Part shown: positions 13,805 to 61,689 of the stretch, one piece after another
How the letters are laid out: every line of letters starts with the position of its first letter
Numbering within the stretch: the first letter of the stretch is position 1
Source: Rhizophagus irregularis
Taxonomy: Eukaryota > Glomeromycota > Glomeromycetes > Glomerales > Glomeraceae
Assembly (NCBI RefSeq): GCF_026210795.1
Contig: NC_089436.1
Location: 1 to 64,000, forward strand
Reading direction: 5' to 3'
DNA length: 64,000 bases
Notes under the pieces: model-generated
Told to the model about the DNA's origin: nothing
The model's input: only the letters and a program-made list of their open reading frames with translations
The model's database searches: none
Made by a program: the position numbers and the translations under genes

Positions 13805-16156
13805 AACTACCTTTCAATATAACAATGTATTTGTTTCAATATTTGCTGGTGGACTATTCAAATAATTATCAAGTTCGTCAGATTGTACAAATTTGCGTTT
13901 TTGTATATATGATTTACAAGTACATTAGACGTATTAGGTGGATTGATAGTTATATATTTGAGCTGGCATATAATTTTTTTTCTATAATTCAGTAATTTGT
14001 TTTTTATATATTTCAATATAATCATCAAACCCATTTTCGTGATAATATTCCATTTTATTTTTTGGATCTAAAACTGTTTAAATGATTTAAATATTTAATA
14101 TAATTGTTATTTATTATAATATTATTAATATAAAAAATATTTAAACTCATATATATTATATAATATATACATACTAGTTGAAATTATATATACAAGTCCA
14201 TCAGATGTTGGATAATAGCGTAATAGTTTTTCCTTTGCATTGTTAGCAGCTATAACAACATCTTCTGAAGGTTTTTTTTTGATCAATAAAATCCTCAATT
14301 ATATCAAGTAAATAATTATAGATCGGAATTGTTTGACATAAGGTAAGGTGATTTGCTTCACTCATTGCAAGGGTTGCTGTTTGAAAACACTAACAATAAA
14401 TTTAAATTTTATTAAATATATAATAAATTAATAATATATTAAATCATTAATAAAAAATTAAAAATAATGGAATTATATATATTTACATACTTCCATTAAA
14501 CTTTCAACTTCCTGGATTCTATTCCAGTCTTCATCTGATAATAAATAAATTTTCAATTCATTATCTGCTGATGCCATATAATGTAATGGCTAATAATAAT
14601 AATAAAAAAAAAAAATCACTATTAATTTAAAATGACAAAATCTAAGTAAAATTATTGACTTTACCTCACGTAAATATAATGCCCTATTCATTATCATGTA
14701 AGTAGAATTCCAGCGTGTTCTTATATCGGGTATTAATTCAAGATCTTTGATTTTTAAAACAGTACATTGCATACTGAAACGTTCCCGTCTTTGGGGTGAA
14801 GCTCTAATTTTAGTTACTAAGATTCTTAACTACATTTAATAAAATATAATTGATAAATATTGAAGTATTAATGTAAAATGTATTATATACAAATAATGAA
14901 TTAAATGAAATTATAAACCTTACTTTCGCAATAACTCCAACAGGAACTTTGTTATTTAATACTTCTTCTTCACTATCAGGGCCTGTTCCTTTTAGGGACT
15001 TTAGAGCATCTTGAGCTGCTAAATTAATGATATGTGCAAAGCAGCGTACGCGTTGATGCTCAATATCAAATGTGACATTGTTTTCATTGCACATTTTCTT
15101 AAAATAATCAAAGAACGTATTCATGTTGGATGCATTGTCACTAGTAACACCTAATAGCTATAAAAAATAAAAAATTAATACAATATTATAAGTTTGTTAT
15201 AATATGTTATATGTGAAAATACCAACTTTTGTTAAAAGTTTGTAGTTTTTCAATACTTGAAAGAACGCAATAGCTAAATTTTCCCTGGAATGGGGCCTTT
15301 TAAATGATAAAATTCAAGTGTAATTTTTTTAAGCTTCCAATTTTCACTAATCCAATGAGCTGTAATTCCAAGGAATGGAATCTGGTTTTTTGACGTCCAC
15401 GCGTCAAGAGTAAATGAAATTTGCCCAGGCACATTTTGCAATTCCTCTAGTATAAAAGTTTGCTTATCATTGAATGCTTGGTGAATATCTTTGCATATGG
15501 TAACAGTGGATGGAATAGTGGCTTCACGATTGAGTCTTTTTATCATTAATTTAAAATGATCATCCTCTACAACGGTAAAAGGTTGATCATTTACAACCAC
15601 CCATTTGATTAAATCATTACACCAATTATCTTGTGTAAATTTCTGTAATTAAATACATATATGGTTATTAATTATCTAAAACTAGTAATTAACGAAAAAA
15701 TAATAATAAATTAATAATACGTACTAGTTCATCTGCTTGTTTTACGAACTTATCCATTGCTTCTACTACTACTTTCTTTTCACCAGAAATTAAATTACTA
15801 TGTTTATTTCTAAGATGTTCTATAAGTGTAGAAGTTGAGCCATCTTTCGATGCTTTATAGGTTATACTAAAAAGAATAATCGAAAATAAGCTACTTTTTT
15901 AAATTTAAATTTACAATTATAATTATAAAAATCAAAAACATAAACTTTACCTGCAGTAGATACAAGAATAAGTATTATTTTGTTTATTTAAGGTAAAGTT
16001 CAAATGAGCAACAGATGTTTTTTTTTTATATCTTCCAATTATAATTTTTTGATTCTCATTGCCTAATTCATTATTTACTTGTTTAGGTTCAGTTTCATCA
16101 CCTTCTATATCAAATCCATCTATATCGGTATTAATCACAGGTCGAACAGATGTCAT
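13805..16156 (-). pseudogene. Decayed hAT-family transposase
   Basis: Read on the minus strand, the order of conserved hAT blocks is complete. A BED-type zinc finger comes first, with CIYC in the first exon and HLRNKH after the intron near 15870-15950. Next are QPFTVVEDDHF and SFTLDAWTSKNQIPFLG (about 15400-15590), then GVTSDNASNM (about 15120-15150), RVRCFAHIINLAAQDAL (about 15010-15060), RTRWNSTYMI (about 14690-14720), and a C-terminal dimerisation piece ELDNYLNSPP near 13850. Introns with GT..AG ends separate several blocks. Breaks include a one-base loss in a C4 run before the GP-H-S-x-E-N motif (about 15295), a frameshift in an A9 run near 14280, and stops near 14000. The protein would excise and integrate an element, but this copy cannot be expressed whole. 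The proposed start is the ATG at 16156, because a satellite begins immediately upstream. Confidence 0.85.
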
Positions 16157-16189
16157 TGTCACAAAATTTGCCTGGAATTTTTCTGGCAA

Positions 16190-17600
16190 ATTGAGAATTA
16201 TCCCGGTAAATTGGGGTAAATTGGGTTACAATTTTGGGATAATGGAGGACTTACAATTTGGCAAATTTTGTCAAAATGGCAGAATTCCTACAGAATTCCT
16301 AATTCAAATGTTGAGAAATTTTTCAGTAAATTATCATTAAATTGTGGGAAATTTTAGGCAAATCTTTAGTAATTTTATGCAAACGAAGTGCAAATTGTGG
16401 TGAATTTAGTTAAATTTTTAGTAATTTTATGCAAATGTAATGTAAATTGTGGTGAATTTTAGGCAAATTTTAGTAATTTTATGCAAACGTAATGCAAAGT
16501 GGTGAATTTGGTTAAATTTTTAGAAATGTTATGTAAACGAAGTGCAAATTGTGGTGAATTTAGTTAAATTTTTAGTAATTTTATGTAAACGAAGTGCAAA
16601 TTGTGGTGAATTTAGTTAAATTTTTAGTAATTTTATGCAAATGTAATGTAAATTGTGGTGAATTTTAGGCAAATTTTTAGTAATTTTATGCAAACGTAAT
16701 GCAAATTGTGGTGAATTTAGTTAAATTTTTAGAAATGTTATGTAAACGAAGTGCAAATTGTGGTGAATTTAGTTAAATTTTTAGTAATTTTATGTAAACG
16801 AAGTGCAAATTGTGGTGAATTTAGTTAAATTTTTAGTAATTTTATGCAAATGTAATGTAAATTGTGGTGAATTTTAGGCAAATTTTTAGTAATTTTATGC
16901 AAACGTAATGCAAATTGTGGTGAATTTAGTTAAATTTTTAGAAATGTTATGTAAACGAAGTGCAAATTGTGGTGAATTTAGTTAAATTTTTAGTAATTTT
17001 ATGTAAACGAAGTGCAAATTGTGGTGAATTTAGTTAAATTTTTAGTAATTTTATGTAAACGTAATGCAAATTGTGGTGAATTTAGTAAATGTAATGCAAA
17101 TTGTGGTGAATTTAGTCAAATTTTTAGTAATGTTATGTAAACGTAATGTAAATTGTGATAAATTATAGTAAATTTTTAGTAATTTTATATAAACGTAATG
17201 CAAATTGTGGTAAATTATAGTGTATTTTTAGTAATGTTATATAAATTGTTGAAAATTTAGGAGGATTTTTCAGCAATGTTGTGCAAACGTAATGCAAATT
17301 GTGAAAAATTGTGGTTAATTTTGCATTTTTTCGGTAAATGTTAGCTAAATTTTTGAATAATTTAGTGAAATTTAGGATAATTTCGGATAATTGAGTGAAA
17401 ATGTTTTACCGATTTTGAACAATTGAGTGTAAACAGTATAAATGCAACATTTTCGGAGACAATTTAGTGAAATTTTGCAATAATTTTGGACAATTAAGTG
17501 AAATTTTGCAATAATTTCGGACAATTGAGTGAAATTTAGTAATAATTTTAAACAATTTAGTGTAAACGTTATAACAATTTAAAACATTGATTTAATAATT
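16190..17600. repeat. 52-bp satellite with 209-bp higher-order unit
   Basis: The monomer contains GTGCAAATTGTGGTGAATTT, AGTTAAATTTTTAGTAATTT and TATGTAAACGAA, 52 bp in all. Variants alternate in a fixed order of four. The diagnostic variant AGAAATGTTATGTAAACG recurs at 16522, 16731 and 16940, exactly 209 bp apart each time. After about 17100 the copies become more diverged and then fade. It abuts the 5' end of the hAT relic. Confidence 0.9.
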
Positions 17601-17682
17601 TTACATAATTTATTACAATATTATTTATTAACAAATGCACAATTATTATTTAATAATAAGAATCTATATTAATTTATATTCA

Positions 17683-19898
17683 TCAGATATCCAATAATCC
17701 ATAGGTAATCCGCACCTCTAATTCATTCATGTATCTAATGTCTGATGCCAAGTAGAAGCTGGCGAAAACCTACAAAAAAAGTAAAGAAACGTTAGTTAAC
17801 GTTTCTTAAAAAAAAATTAATAAAAGTTTCACAACCAATGTTGCGAAACTCACCGGTTCGTTTTGAGTTCCATTATCCAAACGTCTGGAACCTACAAAAA
17901 GTAAAAAAGAAACGTTAGGTAATGTTTCTTTTTAAAAAAAAAAGAATAAAAATTAAGTTTCGCAACACAATGTTGCGAAACTTACCGGTTCGTTTCGATT
18001 TCCATTATCCAAACGTCCGGAACCTACAAAAAGTAAAAAAGAAATGTTAGTTATCATTTCTTTTAATAAAAAAAAACAAAAATTAAGTTTCGCAATGTAA
18101 CATTGCGAAACTTACTGGTCGTTTCCATCATTCTAACGTCCGAACCTACAAAAGTAAAAAAGTTAAACGTAATATAAACGTTTCTTTTAATAAAAAAACA
18201 AAATTAAGTTTCGCAATGTAACATTGCGAAACTTACCGGTCGTTTCCATCATTCTAACGTCCGGAACCTACAAAAAGTAAAAAAGAAACGTTAATATAAA
18301 TGTTTCTTTTAAAAAAAAAGAATAAAATTAAGTTTCGCAACACAATGTTGCCAAACTTACCGGTTCGTTTCGATTTCCATTATCCAAACGTCCGGAACCT
18401 ACAAAAATTAAAAGAAAGAAACGTTTAGTATCATTTCTTTAAAAAAAAATAATTAAAAAAATAAGTTTCGCAATACAATATTGCGAAACTCACCGGTTCG
18501 TTTCGATTTCCATTATCCAAACGTCCGGAACCTACAAAAATTAAAAGAAACGTACGTTAATATCGTTTCTTTAAAAAAAAAATTAAAATTAAGTTTCGCA
18601 ACAATTGTTGCGAAACTTACCAGTTCGTTTCGAGTTTCAAACGTCCGGAACCTACAAAAAAAAAGAAAGAAACGTTAGTTAACGTTTCTTTTAATAAAAA
18701 AATTAAAAATTAAGTTTCGCAACGATTCATTGCGAAACTCACCGGTTGTTTTCATCATTCTAACGTCCGGAACCTACAAAAAGTAAAAAAGAAACGTTAT
18801 AAATATAAACGTTTCTTTTTAAAAAAAAAGAATAAAATTAAGTTTCGCAATGTAACATTGCGAAACTTACCGGTCATTTTCATCATTCTAACGTCCGAAC
18901 CTACAAAAGTAAAAAAAGAAACGTTAATATAAACGTTTCTTTTAAAAAAAAAGAATAAAATTAAGTTTCGCAATGTAACATTGCGAAACTTACCAGTCGT
19001 TTCCATCATTCTAACGTCCGGAACCTACAAAAAGTAAAAAAGAAACGTTAATATAAACGTTTCTTTTAAAAAAAAAAAAGAATATAATTAAGTTTCGCAA
19101 CACAATGTTACGAAACTTACCGGTTCGTTTCGATTTCCATTATCCAAACATCTGGAACCTACAAAAAAAAAGAAAGAAACGTTAGTTAACGTTTCTTTTA
19201 ATAAAAAAATTAAAAAATTAAGTTTCGCAACGATTCGTTGTGAAACTCACCGTTCGTTTCATCTAAACGTCCAGAACCTACAAAAGAAGGAAAGAAACGT
19301 TAGTTAACGTTTCTTTTAATAAAAAAAAAATTTAACAAAAAAAAGAAAATATTACCTTTCTTCCAAAGTCCGGGTCGTAATTTCGTCCGGCATTCCTACA
19401 AAAGAAGAAAGGAAACGTTAGAAACGTTTCCTAAAAGAAATTAAAAAAAGTAAGTTTCGAACACGAAACTTACCATTTCACTTTCCGAAGTTGAAGACCT
19501 ACACAAAAGAAAAATAGGAAACGTTAGAAACGTTTCCTTACAAAAAAGAATTAAAAAAATTTTTTTTTAAAAAAGTTTTGAAGCGAACGCTTCGAAACTT
19601 ACCATTTTTCGTTTTCTCGTTTTCTAAGTCAAAAATACCGAAAGACCTAAAAAAAAAATAAAGGATCGTTAAAAACGATCCTTATAAAAGCAAAAAAAAA
19701 AAAAATTTATTTTAAAGTTTCAAGCGAAACGCTTCGAAACTTACCATAATTTCAGTTCGTTTCCCAAAGTCAAAACATCGAAAATCCTACAAAAAAGAAA
19801 GAAAGGAAACGTTAGAAACGTTTCCTTACAACAAAGAATTAAAAAAAAAAATTAAAATTTAAAAAAGTTTTGAAGCGTTTCGCTTTGAAACTTACCAT
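17683..19898 (-). CDS. Candidate micro-exon array gene, about 18 tiny exons
   Basis: On the minus strand the tandem units each read as acceptor TTTTTGTAG, a 25-44 nt block, then donor GTAAGT or GTGAGT. Blocks (high to low coordinate): one ending at 19896 with ATG; 19786-19745 (42 nt); 19646-19603 (44); 19498-19474 (25, ending ATG); 19395-19356 (40); 19277-19251 (27); 19158-19121 (38); 19024-18994 (31); 18900-18871 (30); 18773-18743 (31); 18651-18621 (31); 18531-18494 (38); 18398-18361 (38); 18267-18237 (31); 18145-18116 (30); 18023-17986 (38); 17891-17854 (38); terminal block from 17769. Introns are 78-109 bp. Spliced in order from the ATG at the end of the 25-nt block, the next five blocks stay open in one frame, although their lengths are not multiples of three. 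The sixth (18773-18743) then meets TAG unless skipped. The terminal block is open for 28 codons in phase 0, ending at TGA 17685-17683. No domain is recognised. It could instead be a non-coding spliced RNA, or a satellite carrying fossil splice sites. Confidence 0.5.
17770..19350. repeat. Tandem repeat of 110-135 bp units, two hairpins per unit
   Basis: Each unit carries an inverted repeat of the form GTTTCGCAA...TTGCGAAAC (stem about 10 bp, loop 3-5 nt) and a second one, GAAACGTTA...TAACGTTTC. They are separated by an A-rich run and followed by the conserved block GGTTCGTTTCGATTTCCATT or its shorter version. About twelve close copies, then more diverged units with the same layout to 19898. 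Stems keep pairing even where their bases differ between units (for example CAATGTAACATTG against CAACACAATGTTG), so the structure rather than the sequence appears conserved. Confidence 0.9.
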
Positions 19899-19904
19899 TG
19901 TTTT

Positions 19905-20080
19905 TCTGAAAGACGGTTCCGGGAAGGGGAAAGGGAATGGGAAAGGAGAACGAAAGAAAAAAGAGGAGAAAACAAAAGAGAAGGGGAGAACGAAAGGGAA
20001 AGGGGGAAATGAAACGAAAAGGGAAGGGGAGAACGAAAGGGAAAGAGGAAGGGAGGAAGGTGAAATGGTGAAAGAAAGGA
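19905..20080. repeat. Polypurine tract
   Basis: About 170 bp almost purely G and A on the plus strand (pyrimidine on the minus strand), with GGGAAAGG and GAACGAAAGGGAAAG motifs. It lies directly upstream of the first ATG of the minus-strand micro-exon array. A CT-rich stretch in that position is typical of fungal promoters or leaders. The plus-strand Lys/Glu/Gly-rich open frame is translated low complexity. Confidence 0.8.
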
Positions 20081-20102
20081 GAAGTAAAGGCCGTGAGAAA
20101 AA

Positions 20103-20136
20103 AAAATTAAGCTTTTGCTAAAAAAAGCTTAATTTT
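20103..20136. repeat. Hairpin with AATTAAGCTTTT arms
   Basis: AAATTAAGCTTTT and AAAAAGCTTAATTT form a near-perfect inverted repeat with a short loop. It is of the same style as the intronic hairpins of the adjacent array and lies between its CT-rich leader and the palindromic promoter block. Confidence 0.8.
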
Positions 20137-20148
20137 TTTTTTTCGTTA

Positions 20149-20216
20149 TACCGCAGCGGTAATTATTAAGTAATATCACGTGACACACGTGATATATAAT
20201 TTTATATAAATAGGGG
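20149..20216. promoter_or_regulatory. Palindromic promoter block with two CACGTG boxes and TATA
   Basis: Within 68 bp are a perfect 13-bp palindrome TACCGCAGCGGTA (20149-20161), a perfect 23-bp palindrome made of two CACGTG boxes with ATAT flanks around an ACA spacer (20173-20195), and TATATAAATAGGGG (20203-20216). CACGTG is the classic bHLH/E-box core. The TATA reads well on the plus strand toward a structured region at 20312-20447. It also reads acceptably on the minus strand toward the micro-exon array, whose first ATG is 300 bp away. The direction of transcription, or both, is inference. Confidence 0.6.
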
Positions 20217-20311
20217 CTTTCCCCCGCCCCGGAATTTTTCTTTTTTTATTTAATAATTTTAAATAGATGTATATATATGCTTATATATACATATATATAT
20301 ATCTATTAACT

Positions 20312-20447
20312 AATACTTTACGAAAAGTTCCCTCCTCTGTAAACAGGTAGAGGCCATAAAGTATCTATAGGGGGAGAGCCATTGCTGCTCCCTCCGCCTG
20401 TTTATAGTGACAAAAAGAGGGAGTCTTCAGTAGTAAGGTTTAGTATT
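20312..20447 (+). ncRNA. Candidate structured RNA or foldback element
   Basis: Nested complementary segments occur in strict mirror order: AATACT (20312-20317) with AGTATT (20442-20447); TCCCTC (20329-20334) with GAGGGA (20417-20422); TAAACAGG (20340-20347) with CCTGTTTA (20397-20404); and GGGAG (20372-20376) with CTCCC (20388-20392). Together they form one long interrupted stem. It lies about 100 bp downstream of the TATA box at 20203. A small foldback MITE would look similar, but no target-site duplication is evident. Confidence 0.35.
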
Positions 20448-20559
20448 AAATTACATCACAACACATCGTGTTGATACATTGTTAATATTAACAATGTGTT
20501 TAATGTTAAATAATGCGTTTAAAATATAAATATTATAAATTTAATAATGTACGTAATTA

Positions 20560-21700
20560 AATAAATAAAAATTATCATCAATTTTTAATGTAATTAAGTG
20601 TAATGCTACGTTATCCAATGTAATTGTAGTATTTTTTTTGTGTTTTTTAGTGCAATTCCGCGTTTTTTAGTGCAATTCCGCATTTTCTAGCATAATGTTA
20701 CATTTTCCAGTATAACGCGAAATTTTCTAAAAAAAAATGATAATTGTGGTACTTTTTAGTGTAATGCTACATTGTCTAGTGCAATTGTGGTATTTTTTAG
20801 TGCAATTCCGAATTTCTAGCATAATGTTACATTTTCCAGCATAATAACGAAATTTTCTAAAAAATATGATAATTGTGGTACTTTTTAGTGTAATGCTACA
20901 TTGTCTAGTGTAATTGTGGTATTTTTTAGTGCAATGCCACATAATCTAGTATAGTGCTACATTTTTTAGTATAATTTAATGTAATGTGGAATTTTCCAAA
21001 AAATGAGATAATTGTGATGCTTTTTAGTGTAATTTGGTGAAATGCTACATTTGATGTAATGCTATATTACTGAGCATTTTCAAAAAAAAATGTAAAATCT
21101 TAACATTTTGACGAAAATGAAACATTTTGACCAAAAAAACGTAAAATTTGCTGAAAATATGCAACATTTGACAGAAAATATAGAATTTTCGTAAAAAAAT
21201 ACAGCCATTTGCAAGAAAATCGGAATATTTGACAAAATTTGACAATGTTACAACAATTTTATGAAATGTTGTTACAATGATATCACATTGAAGATAAAAT
21301 GTGGCATTTTCATAAAAATGCACTATTTGCAAGAAAATTGGAACATTTGACAAAAAAAAAGCAAAATTTGATTTTAATTGACAATGTTATAACAATTTTA
21401 TTAAATGTTATTACATTTGAGGTAAAATGTGAAATTTTCATAAAAATGCACCATTTGCAAGAAAATTGGAACATTTGACAAAAAAAAAGCAAAATTTGAT
21501 TTTAATGACAATGTTATAACAATGTTACGAAATGTTACAAAAATGTTACATTTGAGATATAATGTAGCATTTTCCCAAAATTTCATAAGATTTGCTAAAT
21601 CGGACAATGTTGTAACAATGCTATTCCAAAAAATTGCTCAGCGTAATGCAGCATTTTCCACAATTTCCCACCATTTTTCAGAAGAATGGGGTACTACATT
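20560..21700. repeat. Two degenerate tandem-repeat fields
   Basis: From 20560 to about 21040, units contain TAATTGTGGTACTTTTTAGT, GTAATGCTACATTGTCTAGT and GCATTTTCTAGCATAATG. From 21060 to about 21620 a second set repeats about every 125 bp with CATAAAAATGCACCATTTGC, AAGAAAATTGGAACATTTGA and a GACAATGTTATAACAATGTT piece. The base style resembles the 52-bp satellite at 16.2 kb. The open frames are by-products of the repeats. Confidence 0.8.
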
Positions 21701-21879
21701 TGAATTTTGAATGATAGCGCGCCGACACATTGAATATCGCCAAATCAAAAGAACCGGCTGAACCACTTAGTACTAGCCATGAAAATAAATTTATAAATAA
21801 ATTTATTTAAATTATTATATAAAGTGAATCAAGGTTATTAGATGAATTGTTATCGTGTTTGCGAGGATGTAACTCTAAA

Positions 21880-22080
21880 GTTTTAGTATCGTCAGATGTA
21901 TGCTGTGATATATAATAAATAAATAAAATAAATAAAATAAAATAAATAAATAAGATAAAATAAATATATCAAATAAATAAAATATAACAAATAAAATAAA
22001 TAAAATTAATAAAATAAATAAATCAAATATATCAAATTTATCAGATTTATCAAATAAATCAAGAAAATCGAAAAAATCAA
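21880..22080. repeat. AAATAAATAAAAT simple repeat
   Basis: About 150 bp built from AAAT and AAATA units, grading into ATCAAATAAATCAAG. Non-coding. Confidence 0.9.
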
Positions 22081-22179
22081 GGGATCTACGAAATGATCTA
22101 CAAAATTGATCTACATAAAATTACTGCGCCACATTTCTATTTTAACAACGTGATAATGGAGAATCAAAAAAATTTCTAA

Positions 22180-22625
22180 GACAATTACACGTAAAGGTAT
22201 TTTTGCATTTGATAAGCTAAATATATTAAAAAAAAGTTAAAAATTAATAATGATATTATCATTAAAAAATTTAGGTACAAGAAATGGTAAAAACAAGCCA
22301 ATATTGGTTAATTCAACCAATATTAAAGCTGAAAGTTTACAACCAAAAAGAAAAGGACAATTTGCATCAACTAGAAATTCTAAACAATGCAAAATTACTG
22401 AAAATAATACTGAAAATATTGATTTTGATATAGAAAAAGAGAAAAATAGCCCTTAAGAAGCGTGAACTTCCAGATTTGTGTTCGAGAAATTCTGCAGCCA
22501 GAAAGGCACTTGCCAAAGCTGAAGCAATGGAGCTAATTAATTTAGAAAAAAAGAAGTCATTAGGATTACTTTAAAAAATAACATCAAATATAATTTATAT
22601 TAAAGTAATATAAATAAAATTTATA
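22180..22625 (+). pseudogene. Gene fragment, first copy of a duplicated segment
   Basis: An open piece at 22250-22456 reads MILSLKNLGTRNGKNKPI and continues as a Lys/Asn-rich segment. After a stop and frame changes, a coiled-coil-like part with RKALAEAEAME-type sequence can be followed to about 22570. The whole block, with upstream AAAAATTTCTAAGACAATTA, recurs at 23765-24200 with the same downstream non-coding sequence. No start or complete frame exists and the family is not recognised. Confidence 0.55.
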
Positions 22626-22639
22626 ATTTCTTAAAATTT

Positions 22640-23050
22640 AAATTTTAGTAGTATAGAATAATAATAAAAAAATGAATCATACATACTATGATTTTTTTTT
22701 TATATAGTAATCTAAGTATGTATGTATAAATATGAATCATACATACTACTTTAAAATTATACATACGTAAATCATTCTAACCATACTATACAGAAATTTT
22801 CAATCATACTACATAACTTTCTGAAATACCAGAAATAACTAACCAAGAAAAACGGGTATATAGTAAATCAGTATAGTATGATTCATAAATTTAGTATGTA
22901 TGATAAGACAAATTACCATACTAAGATAATATACATGAATATTATACTATGTGACACAATAAATATTATACTAAAATATTTTATATGATACAATGAAACA
23001 CGTGCAATAAACAATAACATCAGATATAACCTCTCTATCATAGGCTTTTA
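22640..23050. repeat. ATAC-rich dispersed repeat
   Basis: Short CATACATACTA and AGTATGTATGTATAA motifs in both orientations build an imperfect inverted structure. A very similar block follows the second gene-fragment copy at 24230-24400. Related ATAC-rich sequence is seen at 24930-25090 and 35200-35540. Confidence 0.6.
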
Positions 23051-23112
23051 TAATTACATGAAAAAATTTTTTTCTCTATGGGCAAAAAATATTTCTATCC
23101 AAAATAATAAAA

Positions 23113-23706
23113 ATGAGTGAGAAAATAGATCTTTCAGATATAAAAAAACTTGATATTAATTATATTGAGTTAGATCCTGTAAGTAAAATATGTGAGGCTA
23201 ATTTTTTAATTTAATAAATTAATTTTCTTTTGGATTTCTTAAAGGAATATCAAGTTGAAAGTGATAGTAATACTATTGAAAGTGATAAAGATACTGATAT
23301 AAGCGATGAAGAAAAAGACTCAATTGCAATATTTTCAAGAAAGACACATGTACAAGAAATTCATTATGCCACTGTACCAATTGAATATCCAAAAACTTCA
23401 GAATATGGTGTTGCCACAGTATATAATATTACAGGTTCGAAGAATCTAAGAGACTGTTGGAAAAATGTAAGTAATTATCATTTATTAATCTGCAGCTTTA
23501 TTAATTCTATTAAAATTATTAAATACAAATAAATTTTTCTCCAGATTCAATATTCCTTAGGTGGAGGTGGTCAAAGTTCAATTAAGAACTGTCCATTCTT
23601 TGATAATATTAGCATTAAAAAAGAAGAAAGAAACTGCATTTTAATCAATTATTTTCTTTATTTTTTAATATCATTAGAGGACATAAAGTTGATTAAAAAG
23701 CTTTAA
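23113..23706 (+). CDS. Hypothetical gene with WKN-IQYSLGGGG segment, probably partial
   Basis: Three exons can be drawn with consensus junctions: 23113-23178 (ATG start, donor GTAAGT), 23245-23466 (acceptor TTCTTAAAG, donor GTAAGT) and 23545 onward (acceptor TTCTCCAG). Exon 1 is acidic and hydrophilic. Exon 2 begins in an Asp/Glu/Ser stretch and ends in NLRDCWKN. Exon 3 begins IQYSLGGGGQSSIKNCPFFD and runs to TAA at 23704-23706. Clean phases across both introns argue for a real gene. The Gly-rich motif followed by spaced cysteines suggests a small metal-binding or transposon-associated domain, but I do not recognise the family. The last part of exon 3 is low-complexity, and the true 3' end may be lost where the duplicated fragment begins. 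Confidence 0.5.
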
Positions 23707-23764
23707 AAACAATGGAAACTGAAAATAAATTTGGAGTTCCCTATTCAAGGCGTGATAATGAAGA

Positions 23765-24200
23765 AGTCAAAAAAATTTCTAAGGCAATTACACGTAAAGG
23801 TATTTTTGCATTTGATAAGCTTAATATATTAAAAAAAAGTTAAAAATTAATAATGGTATTATCATTAATAAATTTAGGTACAAGAAATGGTAAAAATAAG
23901 CAAATTTTGGTTGATTCAACCAATATTAAAGCTGAAAGCTCGCATCAACTAGAAATTCTAAACAATGCAAAATTACTGAAAATAATACTGAAAATATTGA
24001 TTTTGATATAGAAGAGAGAAAAATAGCCCTTAAGGAGCGTGAACTTCAGATTTGTGTTCAAGAGGCTGCAGCCAGAAAGGCACTTGCTGAAGCTGAAGCA
24101 ATGGAGCCAATTAATTTAGAAAAAAAAGAAGTCATTAGGATTACTTTAAATAATAACATCAAATATAATTTGTATTAAAGTAATATAAATAAAGTTATAA
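23765..24200 (+). pseudogene. Gene fragment, second copy of the duplicated segment
   Basis: Near-identical to 22180-22625 from the AATTTCTAAGGCAATTACAC phrase onward. This copy has lost part of the middle and has a frameshift, but better preserves the coiled-coil piece (ICVQEAAARKALAEAEAM). The duplication also includes the ATAC-rich tail after each copy. Confidence 0.6.
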
Positions 24201-25359: not shown

Positions 25360-28284
25360 TTAAACGCGTGTTCTCTTGTTTGAATGTTCAAAGGGTTCTA
25401 TATATGGAGGGTATGGGTAGTAGATAAAATCATCTCGGAGCTCATTAACATCAGCTAATTCTTTAAATTCTTCACAGAACTCTTCATGTGACCTAAAAAT
25501 CCTTCTCTTTCTAGTTTGTTCAATTCTTTCCCCTATATCTTGACTAATTGCTTTATATCTTGACGTCAATTGACTTGCAGTACTCAAATTTGGATTTGAA
25601 TCTCTGGTCATTACAAACTTGGTACGAGAAGAAAATACAGGTCCGAAGAAAGTATCAAACTTTTCTTGATGAATCAGAATACAATCATTAGGAATGCGTT
25701 CTAATTCCTCATTAAACCGCTGAGTAGTAACAAAAATAGTAATGACACGGTATTTACTCAAAAGGTTACCAAGTTGCGTATATTTCTCTGCTTCTTTTCG
25801 TAACTCCTCTTTCTTCTCTCTGCTCGCTATTTTGCTATCGTTCTTCAGTTTTCTGGCCTTTTCTTCCATTTTATGAGAAATATTTGCATTTCTCTTATGC
25901 TCATCTTCGATTGTTTTCAGATTAAGAAGATTTTTTCTCAATCTGCATTGAATAGCAATAAGAATGGGATCAGGTTCATCTACTAAAAAAAGATATCTGC
26001 AAATGGTGCCGAATAACCATTGATCATAATGTAACCCGGCTTTAACACAGCAGTTTTTCCCTCTTTCGCAGAAAGGTTCAGGCATGGAAATTGATGGTTT
26101 AATTCATAGATTTCAACAGACCCGAAATTGATCAACTGGCCCAGTGTAACATTGCTACCTGAACCACGAAAGAAATTTCCAAGTTTTAATAATTTTTCTT
26201 TGTTCAGCACATCAATCATATTGATGCGTGAAGTTATAAAATCCGCGATAAATTTTTCCCAATTTTGCCACGACCAAATTTCGTCAAGTAAAAATGCATG
26301 GTTTAGATGTTCCGTGAAAACTCCAAGGACACTGGCATAATGATACATAAAGAAGTATGGTATATCAATTTGAACTTTATCTTTCTCTTCCAATCTCCTT
26401 AATATCAAGTGCCTATCACGTTCTAGATGTTCCAATTTTATACGGTGGTCACCATCTTGCAGTACATCAGATATATCTGATTCGATTTCCATAATATTTC
26501 TGTAAACAAGCTCGTATATGAGCATTTTATGTTCTCTAGCATAAGGTTTGATTTTATATGCTGTATCAATATCTTTTGAGACGCTGGTGTAGATTGTCGA
26601 TGGGATTAGTTTCTTTTTTTCAAGATCTTCGAAAAATTCCTTAACCCTTGTAAAATCTTGCCCGAAAAATTCTGCAAAAAGATACTCCAAAGCACGTGGA
26701 AGACCACCTGTATCAAGAAGTAATTGATGTATCCAAACTTTTGGTACCCATACACAATCAGAAACACCATGATTTGTTGCAAATTCCCTCATTATTTCAA
26801 GGCGTGACTCCAAGGAAAGCAGTGGAAGGTCAAGAGGTTCAATAGAATACATTGTAGGTTCCATTGCTCGTATTGCATCCTGTGGTGCTGTACCTGAAAG
26901 TAGAGTCTGCACAAATACTTCAGGAATTTCTCCGGCCATATGATGCCCAAGGGTATACATTAACTGCTTAAATAATTTTTCCCCCCCATTTCGCTCTTTG
27001 AAAATTAGCTGAAATTCATCAATTTGAAGAAAAATGAAAAGATGCTTGCCACGTTGAATCAGACTTTCATGTTCAAGGTTGTGGATGTATAAGAGGACAT
27101 TACTCAATCTGAAACATTGCTTATATTCATTGGATTTCGTACGGAACACTGTAAAACTCATCACATATTTTTTGTGGACCAAATAGTGGTACGCCAACCG
27201 CAATCCAAGAATGATTTCTGATGCAATTTTAATATCCCCCTGGATTTCATACTCATCTAAAGCATAACCATTAGTGAAATCAAAAAGCATGTAAAGCATG
27301 TAAGGCTTTTGGCCTTTTGATATCTTCCATTCTTTGTCGAGACAATTAAACAATTCAACTCCATAACGTGTCTTTCCTAGTGAATTATAGTTTGAATTTG
27401 TTAATTAGAAGGCTAAAACCGCTTTATCTGCAGTAAAAACATACAAGAGAATGTATGAAAGTTACCTATGCCAGGTGCCCCACCGCATAAAAGGATTCGA
27501 TAGTTTGTCTTTGCCGTGGGAGTTTCTTTTTTTATAGCTTTTTGTTTATCTAAGGAATTACAAAAATTCCTGTCAATCACATCAATAGCTTGCTTAAGGT
27601 CACGTTGTTTTAGAGCCATGGGCTTGGGCTTATTATTGTCTACATTGTCTACGTCCATTTGTTTATGAATTCCCTCCAAAATCTTTTTCATGGCATCTTC
27701 GATCGACGTCACTATGTTTTGTAAACAATAAGAAAGCACAGTGTATTAACAAATAGATACGGTACAAGTAACCTATATGTATCAATAATGGCGGGCCAGA
27801 ATACAAAGACTAAGACAACACAGGAAATTTAACTAGAGATACCGTACCTTGTGGAACGCCTTGATGAGAGGGACCTACTTTAACGCGAAAAAAAGAGATC
27901 AGAACAAACTCGATATTTTGTTACTGCGAATTTCTTGTTCGAGAGGTAAACCATTGGGAGACACTTACCAGTGGTGGCGGGCAGAAGCGGTTGGACGATG
28001 ATACGGATGTTAGTGCTAAGGGGTACATCTTGAAAATGAGTTCCAACAGATTCGAATGAATGCAACTCTACTCCTTTGTGTTCTTTTATTGTCATTTCTT
28101 GATTTTCCTTGGTTTGTACAATATCGACTCTCCATAATGTCAGTTTGTCTGCGTCAATGCCAATAAAGGCATTTTGTTTCTCGTCCTTTATAGCTTTTTT
28201 TAGATGCCCAACGGTCGTGTGACTACTAATATCAATCGGAAAAGAGTTTTTAATAGCGTCACCTTGAACGAGACAAAATACCAT
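25360..28284 (-). CDS. Crinkler (CRN)-type effector protein, NTPase plus nuclease-like domain
   Basis: Four exons: 28284-27969, 27877-27848, 27711-27466 and 27376-25360. All junctions are GT..AG in consistent phase, giving about 869 residues if one frameshift is discounted. Residues 1-105 are the ubiquitin-like CRN header (starts MVFCLVQGDA; has LTLWRV, the local form of the CRN leucine motif, and IRIIVQPL). The second exon encodes ten residues (GPSHQGVPQ region). A P-loop NTPase follows: the Walker A loop near residue 197 is split by the third intron (GIG in exon 3, Lys-Thr in exon 4); Walker B is FLQIDEFQ at about 312-319; an SGT sensor-like motif follows. A PD-(D/E)XK-like part begins with FAD (about 658) and IAIQCR (about 674), where the usual Lys is Arg. 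The tail is basic (SNKRTRV). A T7 run at 25985-25991 shifts the frame between the FAD and QCR strands. CRN proteins of this plan are thought to act in host nuclei; activity here is unproven. Confidence 0.85.
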
Positions 28285-29611
28285 GATGTCGGTATATCTG
28301 CAAACGCGAAAATCGAGAGTTAGAAACAAAGTTCAAAAAAGTAATAACACAAATAAAACATTTTGGATACAACGTTAAACCTAGCGGGTAGGGTTTTTTC
28401 CTCAAATTTAGTTTGTACCCGGAACGGCGAAAGTACTCGAGATAGCGAAGAATAGCTTGACATTTTGATTATATGTCATATATATATATATATTTTCATA
28501 AACGGTTGTTGACTAATTACTACGAACTGTGAGTCAGTAATATTACGAACAGAGTCAGCAATGTGTCAAGGACCAAATACAAAATCGAAAAAAATTAAAA
28601 AAATTTATCAATCAAAAATCAGCCACATGTCATGATGTCACATGAGAGTGCCAATCAAAATAATTCCCAGTTGGGAAGACATTACGCAAACAAAGATACT
28701 GTATGTTATGACTGTACATTTACAAGGAAGTGACTCAGAGCTTACAAAGCTAATATCTATTTTTTTTGTTAGGGGAACATAAACTTTTGGTGAGTTCTAC
28801 TAAGGTCAATACTGTTAATTTATTTCTGGCTCTGCATAACTGATGACCATTTTTGTTCTATCTAGAATATCGATGTTAAGGACAAATGAAATCGGATTAA
28901 TGTTGGGATATTATATTAGTATAGATAGTTTGGATGATGGTGTGGGTCTGTAGGCATTAGTATAGAAATGCCTACCATTTCACATTGTAAAAAAAGTCTA
29001 TGTATTATCAAATCATGTAATTTATTTACTGTATCAATAAAGAATTCAAGCTGAAAATGTTATACATTGTATTAAGTATATTTTTCATGGGATATAGAGA
29101 TGTATTAGTAAATAAAAAAAGGTGAGACCTAAAGTCCCACTTAGGTAAAAATGCATTTTAAATAATTGTGTTCTATATGAAAGTTATTATCAAATATGCA
29201 ATCTGAATTTGATTTATTAAGGGTAGAGAAATCGCTATAATTAATTTTTATTATAGTAAAATGTCCAAAAAAAAAAAATTCTGTAATACGATTTCATTGC
29301 AATACCAACTTTTGGTAATACTTAACAAAAAAGGATAAAATTTACATGGTTAGAAAGCCACGGGTCTGAACTACTATTTTTTAACTTAAAAAGATATATT
29401 CGTTTAAAAACTTTTTTGAAAAACTTTCATATGAAGTTTTAAAATGATCATGAATGTCTATATGTTTTTGGCGAATGTGAAATAAAGAAAATTATTGGGT
29501 TCCACATTTTTGGTTCATTTTTGAGTTGACGCGTCATATAAGTCTTTTCTAATTTTAGAAACAAATTTTATTACATTATTTTATACATTATTTTATAAAA
29601 TATACATATAT
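28285..29611. other. Intergenic region between the CRN and helicase genes
   Basis: No gene or repeat of note. A (TA)n run lies at about 28480-28494, roughly 200 bp upstream of the CRN start, and could serve as a promoter element. TTTGCAG just before the CRN ATG could be a 5' leader splice acceptor. Confidence 0.5.
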
Positions 29612-32600
29612 TTATCTTCGAGAATGGCAAAGCCACATTTTCCAATTCTTTTCCATTACTATTGCAGTTACACCTTCAATAACACCAACTATGTGAATAT
29701 TTGTTTGCAACGTATTTCCATTTGGATTTGGCCGGTACAAGTTTATCATTATTTTTACCATTCCACGTATTATAAGCCAGTCTAGCAAGTGCTGAGCGTC
29801 TGCTTTTGTACGGACAATTTTTTTTCGTGTTTCATGATAAATATTCAATGAGGTAAGCTCTTCATTATCACACTTGAGTTGACAATAAACCTGTATGATA
29901 TCTTTTGGTGAAATTAATTTTCCACTTTCACGCAGCTTATTTATTATTTCTTCAACCACCCCTACCATTTTGATAGCATCAGTTTTTACATCAACTTCAT
30001 GTACTAGCTCAGCTTGTACGCGTAAGCAGTTGTCACAATGTGCACATGGAGGACTTAAATTATCACCATTCCATGCAAAATATTCGGCAAGCATTTGCTC
30101 TCTACAGATATATTGTTCTTCACAAAAATGAACAACTTCAAATATTTTTTCACATGCTTTGGCCAGGTATTCTTTTCTTTTATTTGCCTCAAAACTATCA
30201 TTCATATCTTCAGTTATACTACAAAATATATTTTTAATTAAATCATAATATTAATTATATTTCTTTACACAATTAATACTTACGATTCTCTACTTTGTGT
30301 TATAATTGTATAATTAGTGCAAATATCATGGCGGGTATAAAAAATTATACACTTCGCGGGATTATGGTCTCTTCCCGCTCTTCCAGTTTCTTGTACAAGA
30401 TTGCCTATTTTAAAGGGTAAGATTAGTTTTATTAATAATGCTATTATATTTATTTCTTTGATATAATAGTAGTGTCTTACCTATACTCAATGGAAATGAA
30501 TAATGTATTACCAAACGAACTTTTTTATCATTAAGACCCATACCAAAAGCATTAGTTGCAATTATAAGTTGGATTGTATTCTCTTTCCATGATTTCAATT
30601 TTTTTTTTTCTTCACTGTCTAAGGAACTATAATACACAGCCATTGGTAATCCAAGGCCAGATTTTTCCTGAAGTTGCTCATAAACATCATCACATATTCG
30701 TACTGTTGGACAGTAAATAATGCATTTCCCTTCATTTAATTCTTTTAATAGGGTAATAATTTCTCCAATGGTTTTTTCCTTAGTACTTTTAGGGTGCATT
30801 TTCATTGTAAGTTCTGGACGTGAAAAAGATAACCCTCGAACAAAAGCCACATCATTTGAAGCAAGTCCGAGATTCTCCAAAATTAGATAAGCATCAGATT
30901 CCTTGCAAGTTCCCGTAAGCATCATAATTGGACTACTTGGAAAGAATGTTGAAATTTTTCTTAATTTACTCCAGGATTCTCTATATAAGTTAAGTTTAAT
31001 ATATCAAATGAAATTTTTAAATTAATATTTGAATTATATCTTACCTAAAATGCTTGCATTCTATAATGCAATGCACTTCATCTATTACAAATGATACAGG
31101 TGCATATTTTGCGAAATTTAAAAGCATTCTGGTAAATGAACTATTGTTGATAAAGCTTTCTGCAGTTATATATAAGATTTTAATCAACCCAATAGCGATC
31201 TCAGAAAAGACTTTTTCAAAATATTGTGGAGGTTGATGCTTTCCGGTATAGATGCTAGCACATCCAATTCCAGCAGCAATTGTTTCGATCTATAGAAATA
31301 TTAAATTATAATCTTTCTTTCATTAATTGTAGTAAATAATCAGTTTAACTTACCACTTGATCATCAATTAAAGATACTAATGGACTTATTACAACAGTCA
31401 AACCTTCGCGTAAAATTGCAGAAATCCAATAACACATTGTTTTTCCTGCACCTGTACGCATTGAGATAAAGGTATGTTTTCCATTTACATATGATGATAT
31501 TGCTATTTCCTGCATATCTTGAAACTCTTGATATCCAAACATTTTTACAAGTATATCATATGATGTAGGTGGATTAGCTATTAAATTTTGTGGTGGTGGT
31601 ATATATTGTTTATCTGGAAATTCCTGATACCATCCATATTTGAAACAAAATTCATGGTATCGACATAAGCCTAATGGAGAATACTTTGGAAATGCTTTAC
31701 AAGCCAAACATTTCTGAATTTTTTCAAAATCAAGTATATGTTTGGCAAATGTAGGTTCAAATTCTTTAGCTTTGATTTTTTCTTGAACATTACGTCCATA
31801 AGGTACGAAATCCTAAAGAAAATATTTTTTATATTATTTATTTATTTTATTTATTCAATTTTGAATTAGCATATGATGCTCACTGTACCTTATCCCAATC
31901 AAATGTTTCCAAGTTAGTTTTTTGTTCTTGGATTTTTTTGCCTCGTTCTTCATTTCATTTAGCAATATCATTAGAATTTCTTTGGTTTTGTTTTTTTCGT
32001 TCTTCGGCTATTTTACTAATATTTTTCTCATCAGTTTCAGAAAAATATGGAATATTACATGCTGATCGGGCAATTTTCAGCATATTTAACAAACCATTGT
32101 TATATTGAAGAACAGCTAGAGCATGTCGAGTACTATAGGTTTTTCAATAATCAATTTTTTTATCTTGAAAGCATAATTTAACTCGATTGAATGCTTCATT
32201 ATATGATGTTTTAATGTGAGTAATTAAGCTCTGTTTTGTTGGTATATAAAAGCATTCTTTGAGAAATTGACGAAACTTCTCTCTTTGATTAGATGTATAT
32301 TCTTTTAAATGTGGTGCTTTTAATTGAATATCAGGATTTTCTTTTCTCCAACATACTTCATCCCAACAAAGACTATGATCATCTGAAAGGTGAGCAACAA
32401 GACCATCAATTTGTACTTTTTCTAATTCAGCATCGGATACAGTAATTTTATTTTCATCAAGTTTTCGTCCACTTGCTGCATAGACACATGAATTGTAATA
32501 GGTCATTATCGTATTTTCATATTCTTTCCACATGGAACTTTTTGCTGCAACATAGAATAATTAATAATTGAGAATCAGAATAAATAAAACATTTAGCAGT

Positions 32601-38609: not shown

Positions 38610-38658
38610 TTGTTCTCTTTTTCCCCCTTCTTTATTACCGATTTATCAGTGTGTAATA

Positions 38659-46369: not shown

Positions 46370-47470
46370 TCTTATTACTAACGTCCAATTTAAATTACGA
46401 TCATCAATAAAAATTCGCGCGAAATTTTCTTAATAGTATTTAATTTTTAAAGCGCAAAATACCGCTTAATTTTAATGTTCAAAGTCCGATCTACTGCTTA
46501 ATTTAAGAAAAATTCGCGAGAATTTTCCTTAATACCGCTTAATTTTAATGTTCAAAGTCCGATCTACTGCTTAATTTAAGAAAAATTCGCGAGAATTTTC
46601 CTTAATGCCGCTTAATTTTAATGTTCAAAGTCCGATCTACTGCTTAATTTAAGAAAAATTCGCGAGTATTTTCCTTAATATCGTTGAATTTTTAGGTCTG
46701 ATTATTTTAAGTTCAAACTATAAGAAATCTGTATATGGAAATGATACATTTTATATATATTTGATATACGTTTTTATAAATTCCGTATTAAATTCCGTAT
46801 ACGGTAAAAAATAAAAATAAAAATAAATTCCGTATACGGTAAACTAAAAATCACGATTTCAAGAAAAATTCTTGCAAATTTTTCTTGATACCGCTTATTT
46901 TAAAGTTTAAATAAATTGAAATCACGATTTTTTAAGAAAAATTCTTGCGAATTTTTCTTGATACTGCTTATTTTTAAAGTTTAAAGACCGATTAGTAAAC
47001 TAAAATCACGATTTTAAGAAAAATTCTTGCGAATTTTTCTTGATACCGCTTATTTTAAAGTTTAAATAAATTGAAATCACAATTTTTTAAGAAAAATTCT
47101 TGCGAATTTTTCTTGATACTGCTTATTTTTAAAGTTTAAATAAATTGAAATCACGATTTTTTAAGAAAAATTCTTGCGAATTTTTCTTGATACTGCTTAT
47201 TTTTAAAGTTTAAAGACCGATTAGTAAACTAAAATCACGATTTTAAGAAAAATTCTTGTGAATTTTTCTTGATACCGCTTATTTTAAAGTTTAAATAAAT
47301 TGAAATCACGATTTTTTAAGAAAAATTCTTGCGAATTTTTCTTGATACTTCTTATTTTAAAGTTTAAAGACCGATTAGTAAATTTAAATTGCGATCACTA
47401 AGAAAAATTCGTGAATTTACTAATCGCGATCACTAAGAAAAATTAGCGAGAATTTCTTATTTATGTAAAT
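46370..47470. repeat. Tandem hairpin-repeat array, 73/82-bp spacing
   Basis: Each unit carries the inverted repeat AAGAAAAATTC...GAATTTTTCTT with loop TTGC or GCGA. In the later part, hairpin starts at 46862, 46934, 47016, 47089, 47163, 47245 and 47318 give alternating 72-74 and 82 bp spacings, because ACCGATTAGTAAACT is present or absent. Earlier copies (46400-46690) have the GCGAGAATTTTCCTT form with about 73 bp spacing. Linker phrases are AAATCACGATTTT and CTTATTTTAAAGTTTAAA. Confidence 0.92.
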
Positions 47471-61680: not shown

Positions 61681-61689
61681 AAGACCGAT

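What the first reader, a model, noticed from the sequence alone, without database searches (positions are those of the whole stretch)
17683..19898. Array of about 18 micro-exons, each between consensus splice sites
Read on the minus strand, every repeat unit carries acceptor TTTTTGTAG and donor GTAAGT/GTGAGT around a 25-44 nt block. Splice-site bases are the most conserved parts, together with hairpin stems, while block lengths vary. The first five blocks after an ATG stay in one open frame although none of 40, 38, 31 and 30 is a multiple of three. Schistosome micro-exon genes and repeat-exon effectors of the SP7 type in arbuscular mycorrhizal fungi are the nearest known ideas, but I do not recognise this locus. 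It may be a machine for generating protein variants by exon choice.
Basis: partly seen in the sequence, partly recalled or inferred. Interest (0 to 1): 0.9.

Follow-up and report, generated by a model that had tools for sequence, protein, structure and literature searches.

The report
Jumping gene carrying micro-exon array
A mobile DNA element of the root fungus Rhizophagus irregularis carries a row of 17 tiny, hairpin-bearing introns between tiny exons, and comparison of its copies suggests that evolution kept the ability to be spliced rather than any particular protein.

Summary
In detail: on the minus strand 17 intron-like units of 78-109 nt separate an ATG, 16 blocks of 25-44 nt and a last exon. 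But this is no unique locus. It is the interior of a dispersed DNA transposon of Rhizophagus irregularis: terminal repeats CACAGGTCGAA/TTCGACCTGTG, 3-bp target duplications in 18 of 20 copies with both ends found, subterminal repeats, and 8-9 kb relatives with the same ends, no array found, and tnp2/CACTA transposase matches (2 of 3 over Pfam's cut-off). So: a non-autonomous CACTA-type element whose cargo is a micro-exon array. Across copies, donor GT, branch-point A and acceptor AG differ in about 1-3% of comparisons against 12-14% for non-CpG exon bases, base-matched. Hairpin arms are also kept, the 5' stem with compensatory changes. Codon positions do not differ and open frames are barely above chance. 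Selection thus seems to act on splicing, not on a peptide, against the 'protein variant machine'. The locus is already annotated as uncharacterized protein OCT59_027914. I saw no RNA reads; what the splicing is for is inference.

The parts
16136..16146 (+). left terminal inverted repeat CACAGGTCGAA of the transposon copy
   Evidence: same sharp end in 35 of 39 fetched copies; left-end pattern 82 times in the genome, reversed control 0
16339..17245 (.). subterminal ~52-bp tandem repeats, shared with the 8-9 kb transposase-bearing relatives
17458..17590 (.). 31/62-bp tandem repeats between subterminal block and array
17683..17769 (-). last exon; open for 28 codons plus stop in frame 0; the annotated model reads it in frame 1 and stops at 17727
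17770..17853 (-). intron 17 (84 nt)
17854..17891 (-). block 16 (38 nt)
17892..17985 (-). intron 16 (94 nt), fold z -6.4
17986..18023 (-). block 15 (38 nt)
18024..18115 (-). intron 15 (92 nt), fold z -6.3
18116..18145 (-). block 14 (30 nt)
18146..18236 (-). intron 14 (91 nt)
18237..18267 (-). block 13 (31 nt)
18268..18360 (-). intron 13 (93 nt)
18361..18398 (-). block 12 (38 nt), skipped in the annotated model
18399..18493 (-). intron 12 (95 nt)
18494..18531 (-). block 11 (38 nt)
18532..18620 (-). intron 11 (89 nt), fold z -5.8
18621..18651 (-). block 10 (31 nt), skipped in the annotated model
18652..18742 (-). intron 10 (91 nt), fold z -5.3
18743..18773 (-). block 9 (31 nt), skipped in the annotated model
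18774..18870 (-). intron 9 (97 nt), fold z -8.2
18871..18900 (-). block 8 (30 nt)
18901..18993 (-). intron 8 (93 nt)
18994..19024 (-). block 7 (31 nt)
19025..19120 (-). intron 7 (96 nt)
19121..19158 (-). block 6 (38 nt)
19159..19250 (-). intron 6 (92 nt), fold z -4.6
19251..19277 (-). block 5 (27 nt)
19278..19355 (-). intron 5 (78 nt), donor GTAATA, no 5' hairpin, fold z -2.7
19356..19395 (-). block 4 (40 nt)
19396..19473 (-). intron 4 (78 nt)
19474..19498 (-). block 3 (25 nt), ends in ATG
19499..19602 (-). intron 3 (104 nt)
19603..19646 (-). block 2 (44 nt), ends in ATG; the annotated model uses only its first 8 nt (inner donor GTATTT)
19647..19744 (-). intron 2 (98 nt)
19745..19786 (-). block 1 (42 nt), ends in ATG
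19787..19895 (-). intron 1 (109 nt)
19896..19898 (-). first ATG, directly followed by a donor
19921..20090 (-). pyrimidine-rich leader just before the ATG; presumed promoter and transcription start (inference); a similar leader precedes the arrays seen in L026, L030, L051 and L052
20173..21709 (.). right part of the element, shared with array copies (87-88% to L051); 21075-21709 also shared with the 8-9 kb relatives; no TTCGACCTGTG found in window 14001-24000, so this copy lacks its right terminal repeat

Best explanation
The feature is the interior of a copy (16136 to about 21709, right end lost) of a non-autonomous CACTA-type DNA transposon of Rhizophagus irregularis. Relatives with matching ends that carry tnp2-type transposase frames could move it. 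In place of a transposase the element carries a tandem array of exon-intron units. Each intron has a GTRAGT donor inside a hairpin, a YTAAC branch point at or near the tip of a second hairpin about 24 nt before the acceptor, a T-rich tract and TAG; exons are 25-44 nt. In the lineages that kept multiplying, selection kept every intron removable but fixed neither exon sequence nor reading frame. Proposed working: the element is transcribed leftward from the CT-rich leader, the hairpins fold as the RNA emerges and hold each donor with its own branch point, and the spliceosome turns the repeat-rich transcript into a short RNA that looks like an ordinary spliced mRNA, which favours export and escape from silencing; the peptides are incidental. 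Shown: element identity, unit anatomy, conservation pattern. Inferred from that: real splicing (about 0.9), selection for splicing rather than for peptide (about 0.75). Guess: escape from silencing as the benefit (about 0.3).
For: Transposon: sharp left end in 35 of 39 copies, both terminal repeats in 20 loci and at least 3 bp duplicated in 18 of those 20, end patterns 82 and 69 times with reversed controls 0. Partner: L048-L050, taken by their ends, share ends and subterminal repeats; PF02992 tnp2 E 8.9e-10 (L048) and 8.3e-10 (L050), both over cut-off, L049 0.0031 under it. L051, also taken by its ends, 4.2 kb, has an array about 65% like the window's with the same architecture. Introns: donor +1/+2 mismatch 7/384 and 9/393, acceptor A/G 12/405 and 13/407, branch A 5/343 and the T two before it 10/338, exons 1784/12798. 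Base-matched, CpG left out: G 2.0 v 12.8%, A 2.5 v 12.8%, T 2.7 v 11.8% column means. YTAAC in 293 of 361 distinct introns against at most 65 in 50 shuffles, median 24 nt from branch A to the end of AG. 5' hairpin: partner arm at 375 of 418 donors; in the commonest length class (70 distinct) 92.4% paired against a shuffle maximum of 82.6% and 76 compensatory cells against a maximum of 47; RNAalifold finds double changes at 4 of 8 pairs. Not a peptide: codon positions alike and skipped blocks' sites kept, open path marginal.
Against: No RNA read was seen. Public annotations give protein models here and at other copies, and two isoforms at one copy, so translation is not excluded. 144 codons of open path is in the upper tail of the shuffles (5-8%). 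RNAalifold did not put the second hairpin into its consensus and I made no covariation test of it; in 54 of 361 introns the branch motif lies outside the hairpin found and 63 have a hairpin but no YTAAC. Among ten recent copies the non-T, non-CpG rate is similar in exons and introns (15/1354 and 24/3069) and most changes are CpG decay, so constraint is not visible after insertion. Escape from silencing has no direct support.
Confidence: 0.6

Rival explanations
1. Protein-variant generator: the array is a coding gene whose micro-exons are chosen in different combinations and frames to give many small repeat proteins.
For: Annotated protein OCT59_027914 (P0001, 153 aa) maps exactly to the window with 15 exons: 12 blocks at full length, one shortened, three skipped. 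Two annotated isoforms at L025 (P0025, P0026) read the same early block in different frames. Longest path with skipping 144 codons against a shuffle median of 98.
Against: No codon-position signal; sites of skipped blocks as well kept as those of used blocks; 12 of 16 block lengths are not multiples of three; exons vary like hairpin loops; several exons of the L025 models use unusual donors such as GTTAGG, as models forced to stay open would; no Pfam match for P0001, P0015, P0020.
Confidence: 0.17
2. Insertion tolerance: the array lets a host transcript splice the element out or join its exons, so that insertions in genes do less harm.
For: Twelve empty sites rebuilt in a script lie in open frames of median 132 aa against 95 aa for other points of the same flanks.
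Against: Open runs of at least 60 aa at the left junction in 14 of 33 usable loci, 38% at random window points (a baseline raised by one 1821-aa frame); array strand against the open run 8 to 6. More than a kilobase of element lies outside the array on either side.
Confidence: 0.08
3. Small-RNA source: excised hairpin introns feed RNA interference in the manner of mirtrons.
For: Stable hairpins in the introns; passages of PMC8647823 report small RNAs and DNA methylation at R. irregularis transposable elements.
Against: The two stems are only about 10-14 bp each and separate, short for Dicer substrates (size limit recalled); no small-RNA reads were examined.
Confidence: 0.08
4. DNA-level palindromes (binding sites or satellite) that merely look like splice sites.
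For: Both hairpins are near-perfect DNA palindromes; C-G decay at the outer pairs is the same on both arms.
Against: The acceptor TAG and the T-rich tract are outside the palindromes yet TAG is the best kept class (25/1215); donor position +3 varies A/G (77/393) exactly where the splice consensus allows it; YTAAC sits at a fixed distance; the three transposase-bearing relatives lack the motif on that strand.
Confidence: 0.04
5. Dead tandem expansion of a captured gene piece, with neutral decay only.
For: Stops in most frames; recent copies differ mainly by CpG decay; the window copy lacks its right terminal repeat.
Against: Neutral decay cannot give a five- to six-fold lower rate at GT, branch A and AG than at matched bases, nor the same architecture at about 65% identity in L051 and L054.
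Confidence: 0.03

Closest known systems
Non-autonomous CACTA/EnSpm (CMC) DNA transposons
   Same: Terminal repeats beginning CAC, 3-bp target duplications, subterminal tandem repeats, longer relatives with matching ends and tnp2 transposase. CMC-EnSpm and Plavaka elements are reported and expressed in R. irregularis (passages of PMC11075540 and PMC8647823).
   Different: The interior is a tandem array of structured micro-introns; I recall no CACTA derivative with such cargo, and the open-access searches listed none by title or abstract start.
SP7-like effectors of arbuscular mycorrhizal fungi
   Same: Same organism group; repeat units in a predicted small protein.
   Different: SP7-like proteins have a signal peptide, 6-11 repeats ending in Y[KR]Rx[AP]x[AP] and a conserved intron before the first repeat (passages of PMC11333574); here there is no tyrosine in P0001 and the repeats are intron-exon units of a transposon.
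Schistosome micro-exon genes (MEGs)
   Same: Chains of very short exons with alternative use proposed.
   Different: From memory, MEG exons are mostly symmetrical multiples of three behind a signal peptide; here 4 of 16 blocks are multiples of three.
Introners, and the inverted-repeat stwintrons and introns of Hypoxylaceae
   Same: Multiplying introns with inverted repeats that fold (PMC8469720 abstract; PMC7789003 passages).
   Different: There the whole intron is one inverted repeat and single introns enter genes; here each intron holds two separate hairpins, the introns stand in tandem, and a cut-and-paste transposon moves the whole array.

Membership tests
CACTA/EnSpm (CMC) DNA transposon, non-autonomous | terminal inverted repeats starting CAC | tested here: met
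   CACAGGTCGAA/TTCGACCTGTG; both ends within the fetched stretch in 20 of 40 loci, window included
CACTA/EnSpm (CMC) DNA transposon, non-autonomous | 3-bp (2-3 bp) target-site duplication | tested here: met
   at least 3 bp in 18 of 20, 2 bp in L031, none in L022; not testable in the window copy, which lacks its right end
CACTA/EnSpm (CMC) DNA transposon, non-autonomous | longer relatives with the same ends encode a tnp2-type transposase | tested here: met
   L048 and L050 over the PF02992 cut-off, L049 under it; mobilisation in trans not tested
CACTA/EnSpm (CMC) DNA transposon, non-autonomous | subterminal repeats shared with those relatives | tested here: met
   best matches of the left block 84-91% identical in L048-L050
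SP7-like effector | repeat motif Y[KR]Rx[AP]x[AP] | tested here: not met
   P0001 contains no tyrosine; motif as given in PMC11333574
SP7-like effector | N-terminal signal peptide | not tested
   no predictor was run; P0001 begins MDFRCFDFGKRTEIM, without a hydrophobic stretch by eye
Micro-exon gene of the schistosome kind | exon lengths mostly multiples of three (recalled) | tested here: not met
   4 of 16 blocks
U2-type spliceosomal introns | GT donor, branch site, pyrimidine tract and AG acceptor under constraint | tested here: met
U2-type spliceosomal introns | observed excision in RNA | not testable with these tools
   no reads held; annotated models use these junctions
Introner element | single intron inserted into a host gene as a unit | tested here: not met
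   introns stand in tandem inside a transposon with its own ends

The most novel reading that the evidence does not exclude
A selfish strategy in which a transposon lives off the spliceosome: it has replaced protein coding with an array of self-insulating, hairpin-bearing introns whose removal is itself the selected trait. The module occurs in more than one element type (window type, L054 type, L052 type), so it may be a portable splicing device that mobile elements of this genome share.
Probability: 0.25. Interest if true: 0.88.

Novelty: new variant of a known kind. Interest (0 to 1): 0.7.

Why it matters
If right, tandem micro-introns in a transposon are kept for splicing and not for protein, which would be an unusual case of selection on RNA processing in selfish DNA and a ready natural test bed: hundreds of sister introns with natural variants of donor, branch site and two hairpins. 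It would also mean that some of the small lineage-specific genes of R. irregularis, such as OCT59_027914, are transposon interiors; 50 such predicted proteins were found, each named R. irregularis. That bears on counts of orphan genes and effector candidates in mycorrhizal fungi.

Tried and rejected
Unique locus or SP7-type effector: rejected. Insertion tolerance: no clear bias. Coding: tested three ways, weak at best. Mutation bias as the cause of splice-site conservation: recent copies mutate mainly C to T and G to A, so I repeated the comparison by base and without CpG, and it held. Rfam and tRNA scans of the window: nothing. Of the proteins, P0002 and P0013 gave no exact spliced match to the locus tried. 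A control within the element just upstream of the array in ten recent copies gave 1045/9765 mismatches; I did not check that alignment, which holds repeats and possibly unrelated flank, and draw nothing from it. The 8-9 kb size class was read by eye from the end lists: 13 pairs, of which one (C28) is an array copy (L016), so spacing alone does not define the class; three of the others were fetched. Copies L009-L047 were found with an array query, so that they have arrays is by construction; L048-L051 were chosen by their ends. Only 40 of 206 candidates were scored, so copy numbers are lower bounds. One count in my notebook (21 loci with both ends, 19 with duplications) was wrong; the recount is 20 and 18.
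Full report
Where it is. The window is the first 64 kb of contig C8 of a genome of 146,748,485 bases in 32 contigs; it begins with TAACCC telomere repeats. C8 is 5,296,510 bases long, the length of the contig recorded for Rhizophagus irregularis protein OCT59_027914, and C13 is 5,085,394 bases long, the scaffold N50 given for the DAOM197198 assembly in PMC10234402 (passages). I take it to be that assembly.

The observation. On the minus strand between 19898 and 17683 there are 17 units with donor and acceptor. 16 of 17 donors are GTAAGT or GTGAGT, one is GTAATA; 17 of 17 acceptors are TAG. Introns are 78-109 nt, the 16 internal blocks 25-44 nt. The introns I folded carry a hairpin that begins inside the donor (pairs from position +2) and a second one ahead of the T-rich tract; six of seven have z -4.6 to -8.2, while the intron with GTAATA lacks the first hairpin (z -2.7).

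It is a transposon. A 301-nt piece of the array matches 255 places; only 40 of 206 candidates were scored, and by my reading they fall into 40 loci including the window. I fetched the other 39. The match to the window runs out from the array to a sharp left end at 16136 in 35 of 39. Where both ends lie within the fetched stretch (20 loci), they are CACAGGTCGAA and TTCGACCTGTG, give or take one base, and the flanking bases repeat: 3 bp in 17, 4 bp in one, 2 bp in one, none in one. The left-end pattern occurs 82 times in the genome and the right-end pattern 69 times, with up to two mismatches, reversed controls 0. The window copy has no right repeat within 14001-24000.

Its partner. Three loci chosen because their ends lie 8.4-9.1 kb apart (L048-L050) share the ends and subterminal repeats but have no GTRAGTTT donor on the array's strand and no match over 120 nt to the array. 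Reading-frame pieces of L048 and L050 match Pfam PF02992, transposase tnp2, at E 8.9e-10 and 8.3e-10; that of L049 is below the cut-off (0.0031). A fourth locus chosen by its ends, 4.2 kb apart (L051), has an array about 65% identical to the window's with the same layout and a different sequence. The family is thus CACTA-type, with array elements as a non-autonomous class. That they are moved by the longer relatives is inference.

What is conserved. I aligned the window array to the other copies (50 stretches; 39 copies gave any match) and counted departures from the column majority: acceptor TAG 25/1215, donor +1 7/384 and +2 9/393, +3 (A or G) 77/393, first-hairpin 3' arm 5.4% and rest of 5' arm 7.3%, second-hairpin arms 6.1 and 8.0%, loops 16.0 and 15.3%, other intron 12.4%, exons 1784/12798 (13.9%). 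The branch-site A departs in 5/343 and the T two before it in 10/338. As recent copies mutate mostly by C to T and G to A at CpG, I repeated the comparison by base without CpG: column means G 2.0 v 12.8%, A 2.5 v 12.8%, T 2.7 v 11.8%, Mann-Whitney p 3e-8, 4e-7 and 2e-5. Columns are not independent of shared descent, so the p values are only a guide; and part of the exon rate comes from aligning blocks of different types.

Branch site and hairpins. YTAAC lies 10-62 nt before the end in 293 of 361 distinct introns (50 shuffles: mean 49, maximum 65), with a median of 24 nt from the branch A to the end of AG. In the 344 introns where a second hairpin was found, the branch A lies in the loop in 138, in the 3' arm in 88, in the 5' arm in 1, outside in 54, and 63 have no YTAAC. 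For the first hairpin, 375 of 418 donors have the partner motif; inner pairs covary (length class 17, 70 distinct: 92.4% paired, shuffle maximum 82.6%, slid versions at most 46%; class 16, 40 distinct: 87.1% against 78.7%). RNAalifold on 50 introns predicts 8 pairs, all in the first hairpin, 4 with double changes; it does not predict the second one. I made no covariation test of the second hairpin.

Is it coding? Public annotation says so. P0001 (OCT59_027914, 153 aa) maps letter for letter to the window with 15 exons: the ATG, 12 blocks at full length, block 2 cut to 8 nt, the last exon; blocks 9, 10 and 12 are skipped. P0002 from another annotation of the strain shares peptides but did not map exactly. 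At L025 two annotated isoforms read a shared early block in different frames, with several unusual donors. PMC10234402 says gene models were refined with Nanopore cDNA through PASA (passages), so isoforms may rest on reads, but I saw none. My tests: with all blocks the frame stops after 20 codons; with free skipping the best path is 144 codons against a shuffle median of 98, and 5-8% of 1000 shuffles do as well, depending on the rule. Codon positions 1, 2 and 3 of the annotated frame depart in 14.4, 13.3 and 14.2%. Splice sites of the skipped blocks are kept (donors 1/385, acceptors 4/261) at least as well as those of ten used blocks (44/1096, 16/699). Protein searches found 45 relatives at E up to 10 and 50 with a profile at E up to 0.001, each named R. 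irregularis; no Pfam match in the three tried.

Recent copies. Ten near-identical copies (L030 type) show 1/176 changes at GT, 1/156 at AG, 66/2606 in exons and 53/6489 in introns. The exon excess is mainly CpG decay; at non-T, non-CpG bases it is 15/1354 against 24/3069. So single copies appear to decay freely after insertion, and the constraint seen between older copies was exerted in lineages that kept spreading.

Wider spread. The exact first-hairpin pattern occurs 223 times, control 0; 100 places were listed. Some lie away from the listed ends. L054 (C1:1449300) is an array 65-68% like the window's in its long matches, with no match to the element's flanks; seven other places match at least 1,100 nt of its array at 82-94%, and a boundary at L054:273-275 recurs at C3, C16, C25 and C30, so it seems to be a different element whose class I could not determine. 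L052 (C2:2140500) has hairpin-bearing introns of unrelated sequence and matches at many other places, which I did not inspect.

How it may work. Shown by sequence: a mobile element with a chain of complete introns under constraint. Inferred: the chain is transcribed leftward and spliced, since no other process known to me reads donor, branch A and acceptor together. Inferred: the spliced product's sequence matters little. Guess: each donor and its branch site are held in local hairpins so that near-identical units splice to their neighbours, and the resulting intron-free short RNA passes as an mRNA, helping the element to be expressed in a genome with small-RNA and methylation control of transposons (PMC8647823, passages). 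Insertion tolerance was tested and found no clear support: 14 of 33 left junctions in open runs of at least 60 aa against a 38% baseline, strands 8 to 6; the rebuilt-site test leaned weakly towards it (median 132 v 95 aa, 12 sites).

Known or new. CACTA elements, including fungal Plavaka types, are known in this fungus (passages of PMC11075540). Words for intron or splicing do not occur in that paper (intron) or in PMC8647823. Nine searches of the open-access library listed no paper whose title or shown abstract describes micro-exon arrays in a transposon; subscription papers are not covered. I file it as a new variant of non-autonomous CACTA element, with an array cargo whose function is open.

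Noticed in passing
L054:273-1000 and C3, C16, C25, C30 copies: A second micro-exon array family with other element ends; its downstream flank reads like the dimerisation end of a hAT transposase (by eye, not tested).
   Followed up: partly
L052:1-2100 (+): A third, unrelated-sequence array of hairpin-bearing introns behind a CT-rich leader; the query from it matches many places in the genome.
   Followed up: partly
window 48216-50411 (-), with repeats at 46458-47445 and 61681-62288: Separate tnp2-type transposase remnant (PF02992 E 5.5e-9 for 49686-50408) between related tandem repeats: perhaps another CACTA element spanning about 46.4-62.3 kb.
   Followed up: partly
window 38581-44046 (+): 1821-aa open frame that looks like a non-LTR retrotransposon (endonuclease, reverse transcriptase, RNase H) by eye.
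   Followed up: no
window 25360-28332 (-): Frames that look like a Crinkler-type gene by eye.
   Followed up: no
window 29612-31812 (-): Frames that look like a RecQ-type helicase by eye.
   Followed up: no
L016, L017, L027 and two further places (C7:5232419, C30:120766): Some array copies carry an extra upstream exon beginning MSFAVKFALLRRVPRYG that is part of annotated models P0020 and P0022; whether the last two places hold arrays was not checked.
   Followed up: partly
L025: Two annotated isoforms (P0025, P0026) of one gene read the same early micro-exon in different frames.
   Followed up: partly
genome G000: PF02992 transposase matches are abundant: 155 matches with 150 of 393 candidates scored, none in 14 control genomes.
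   Followed up: no
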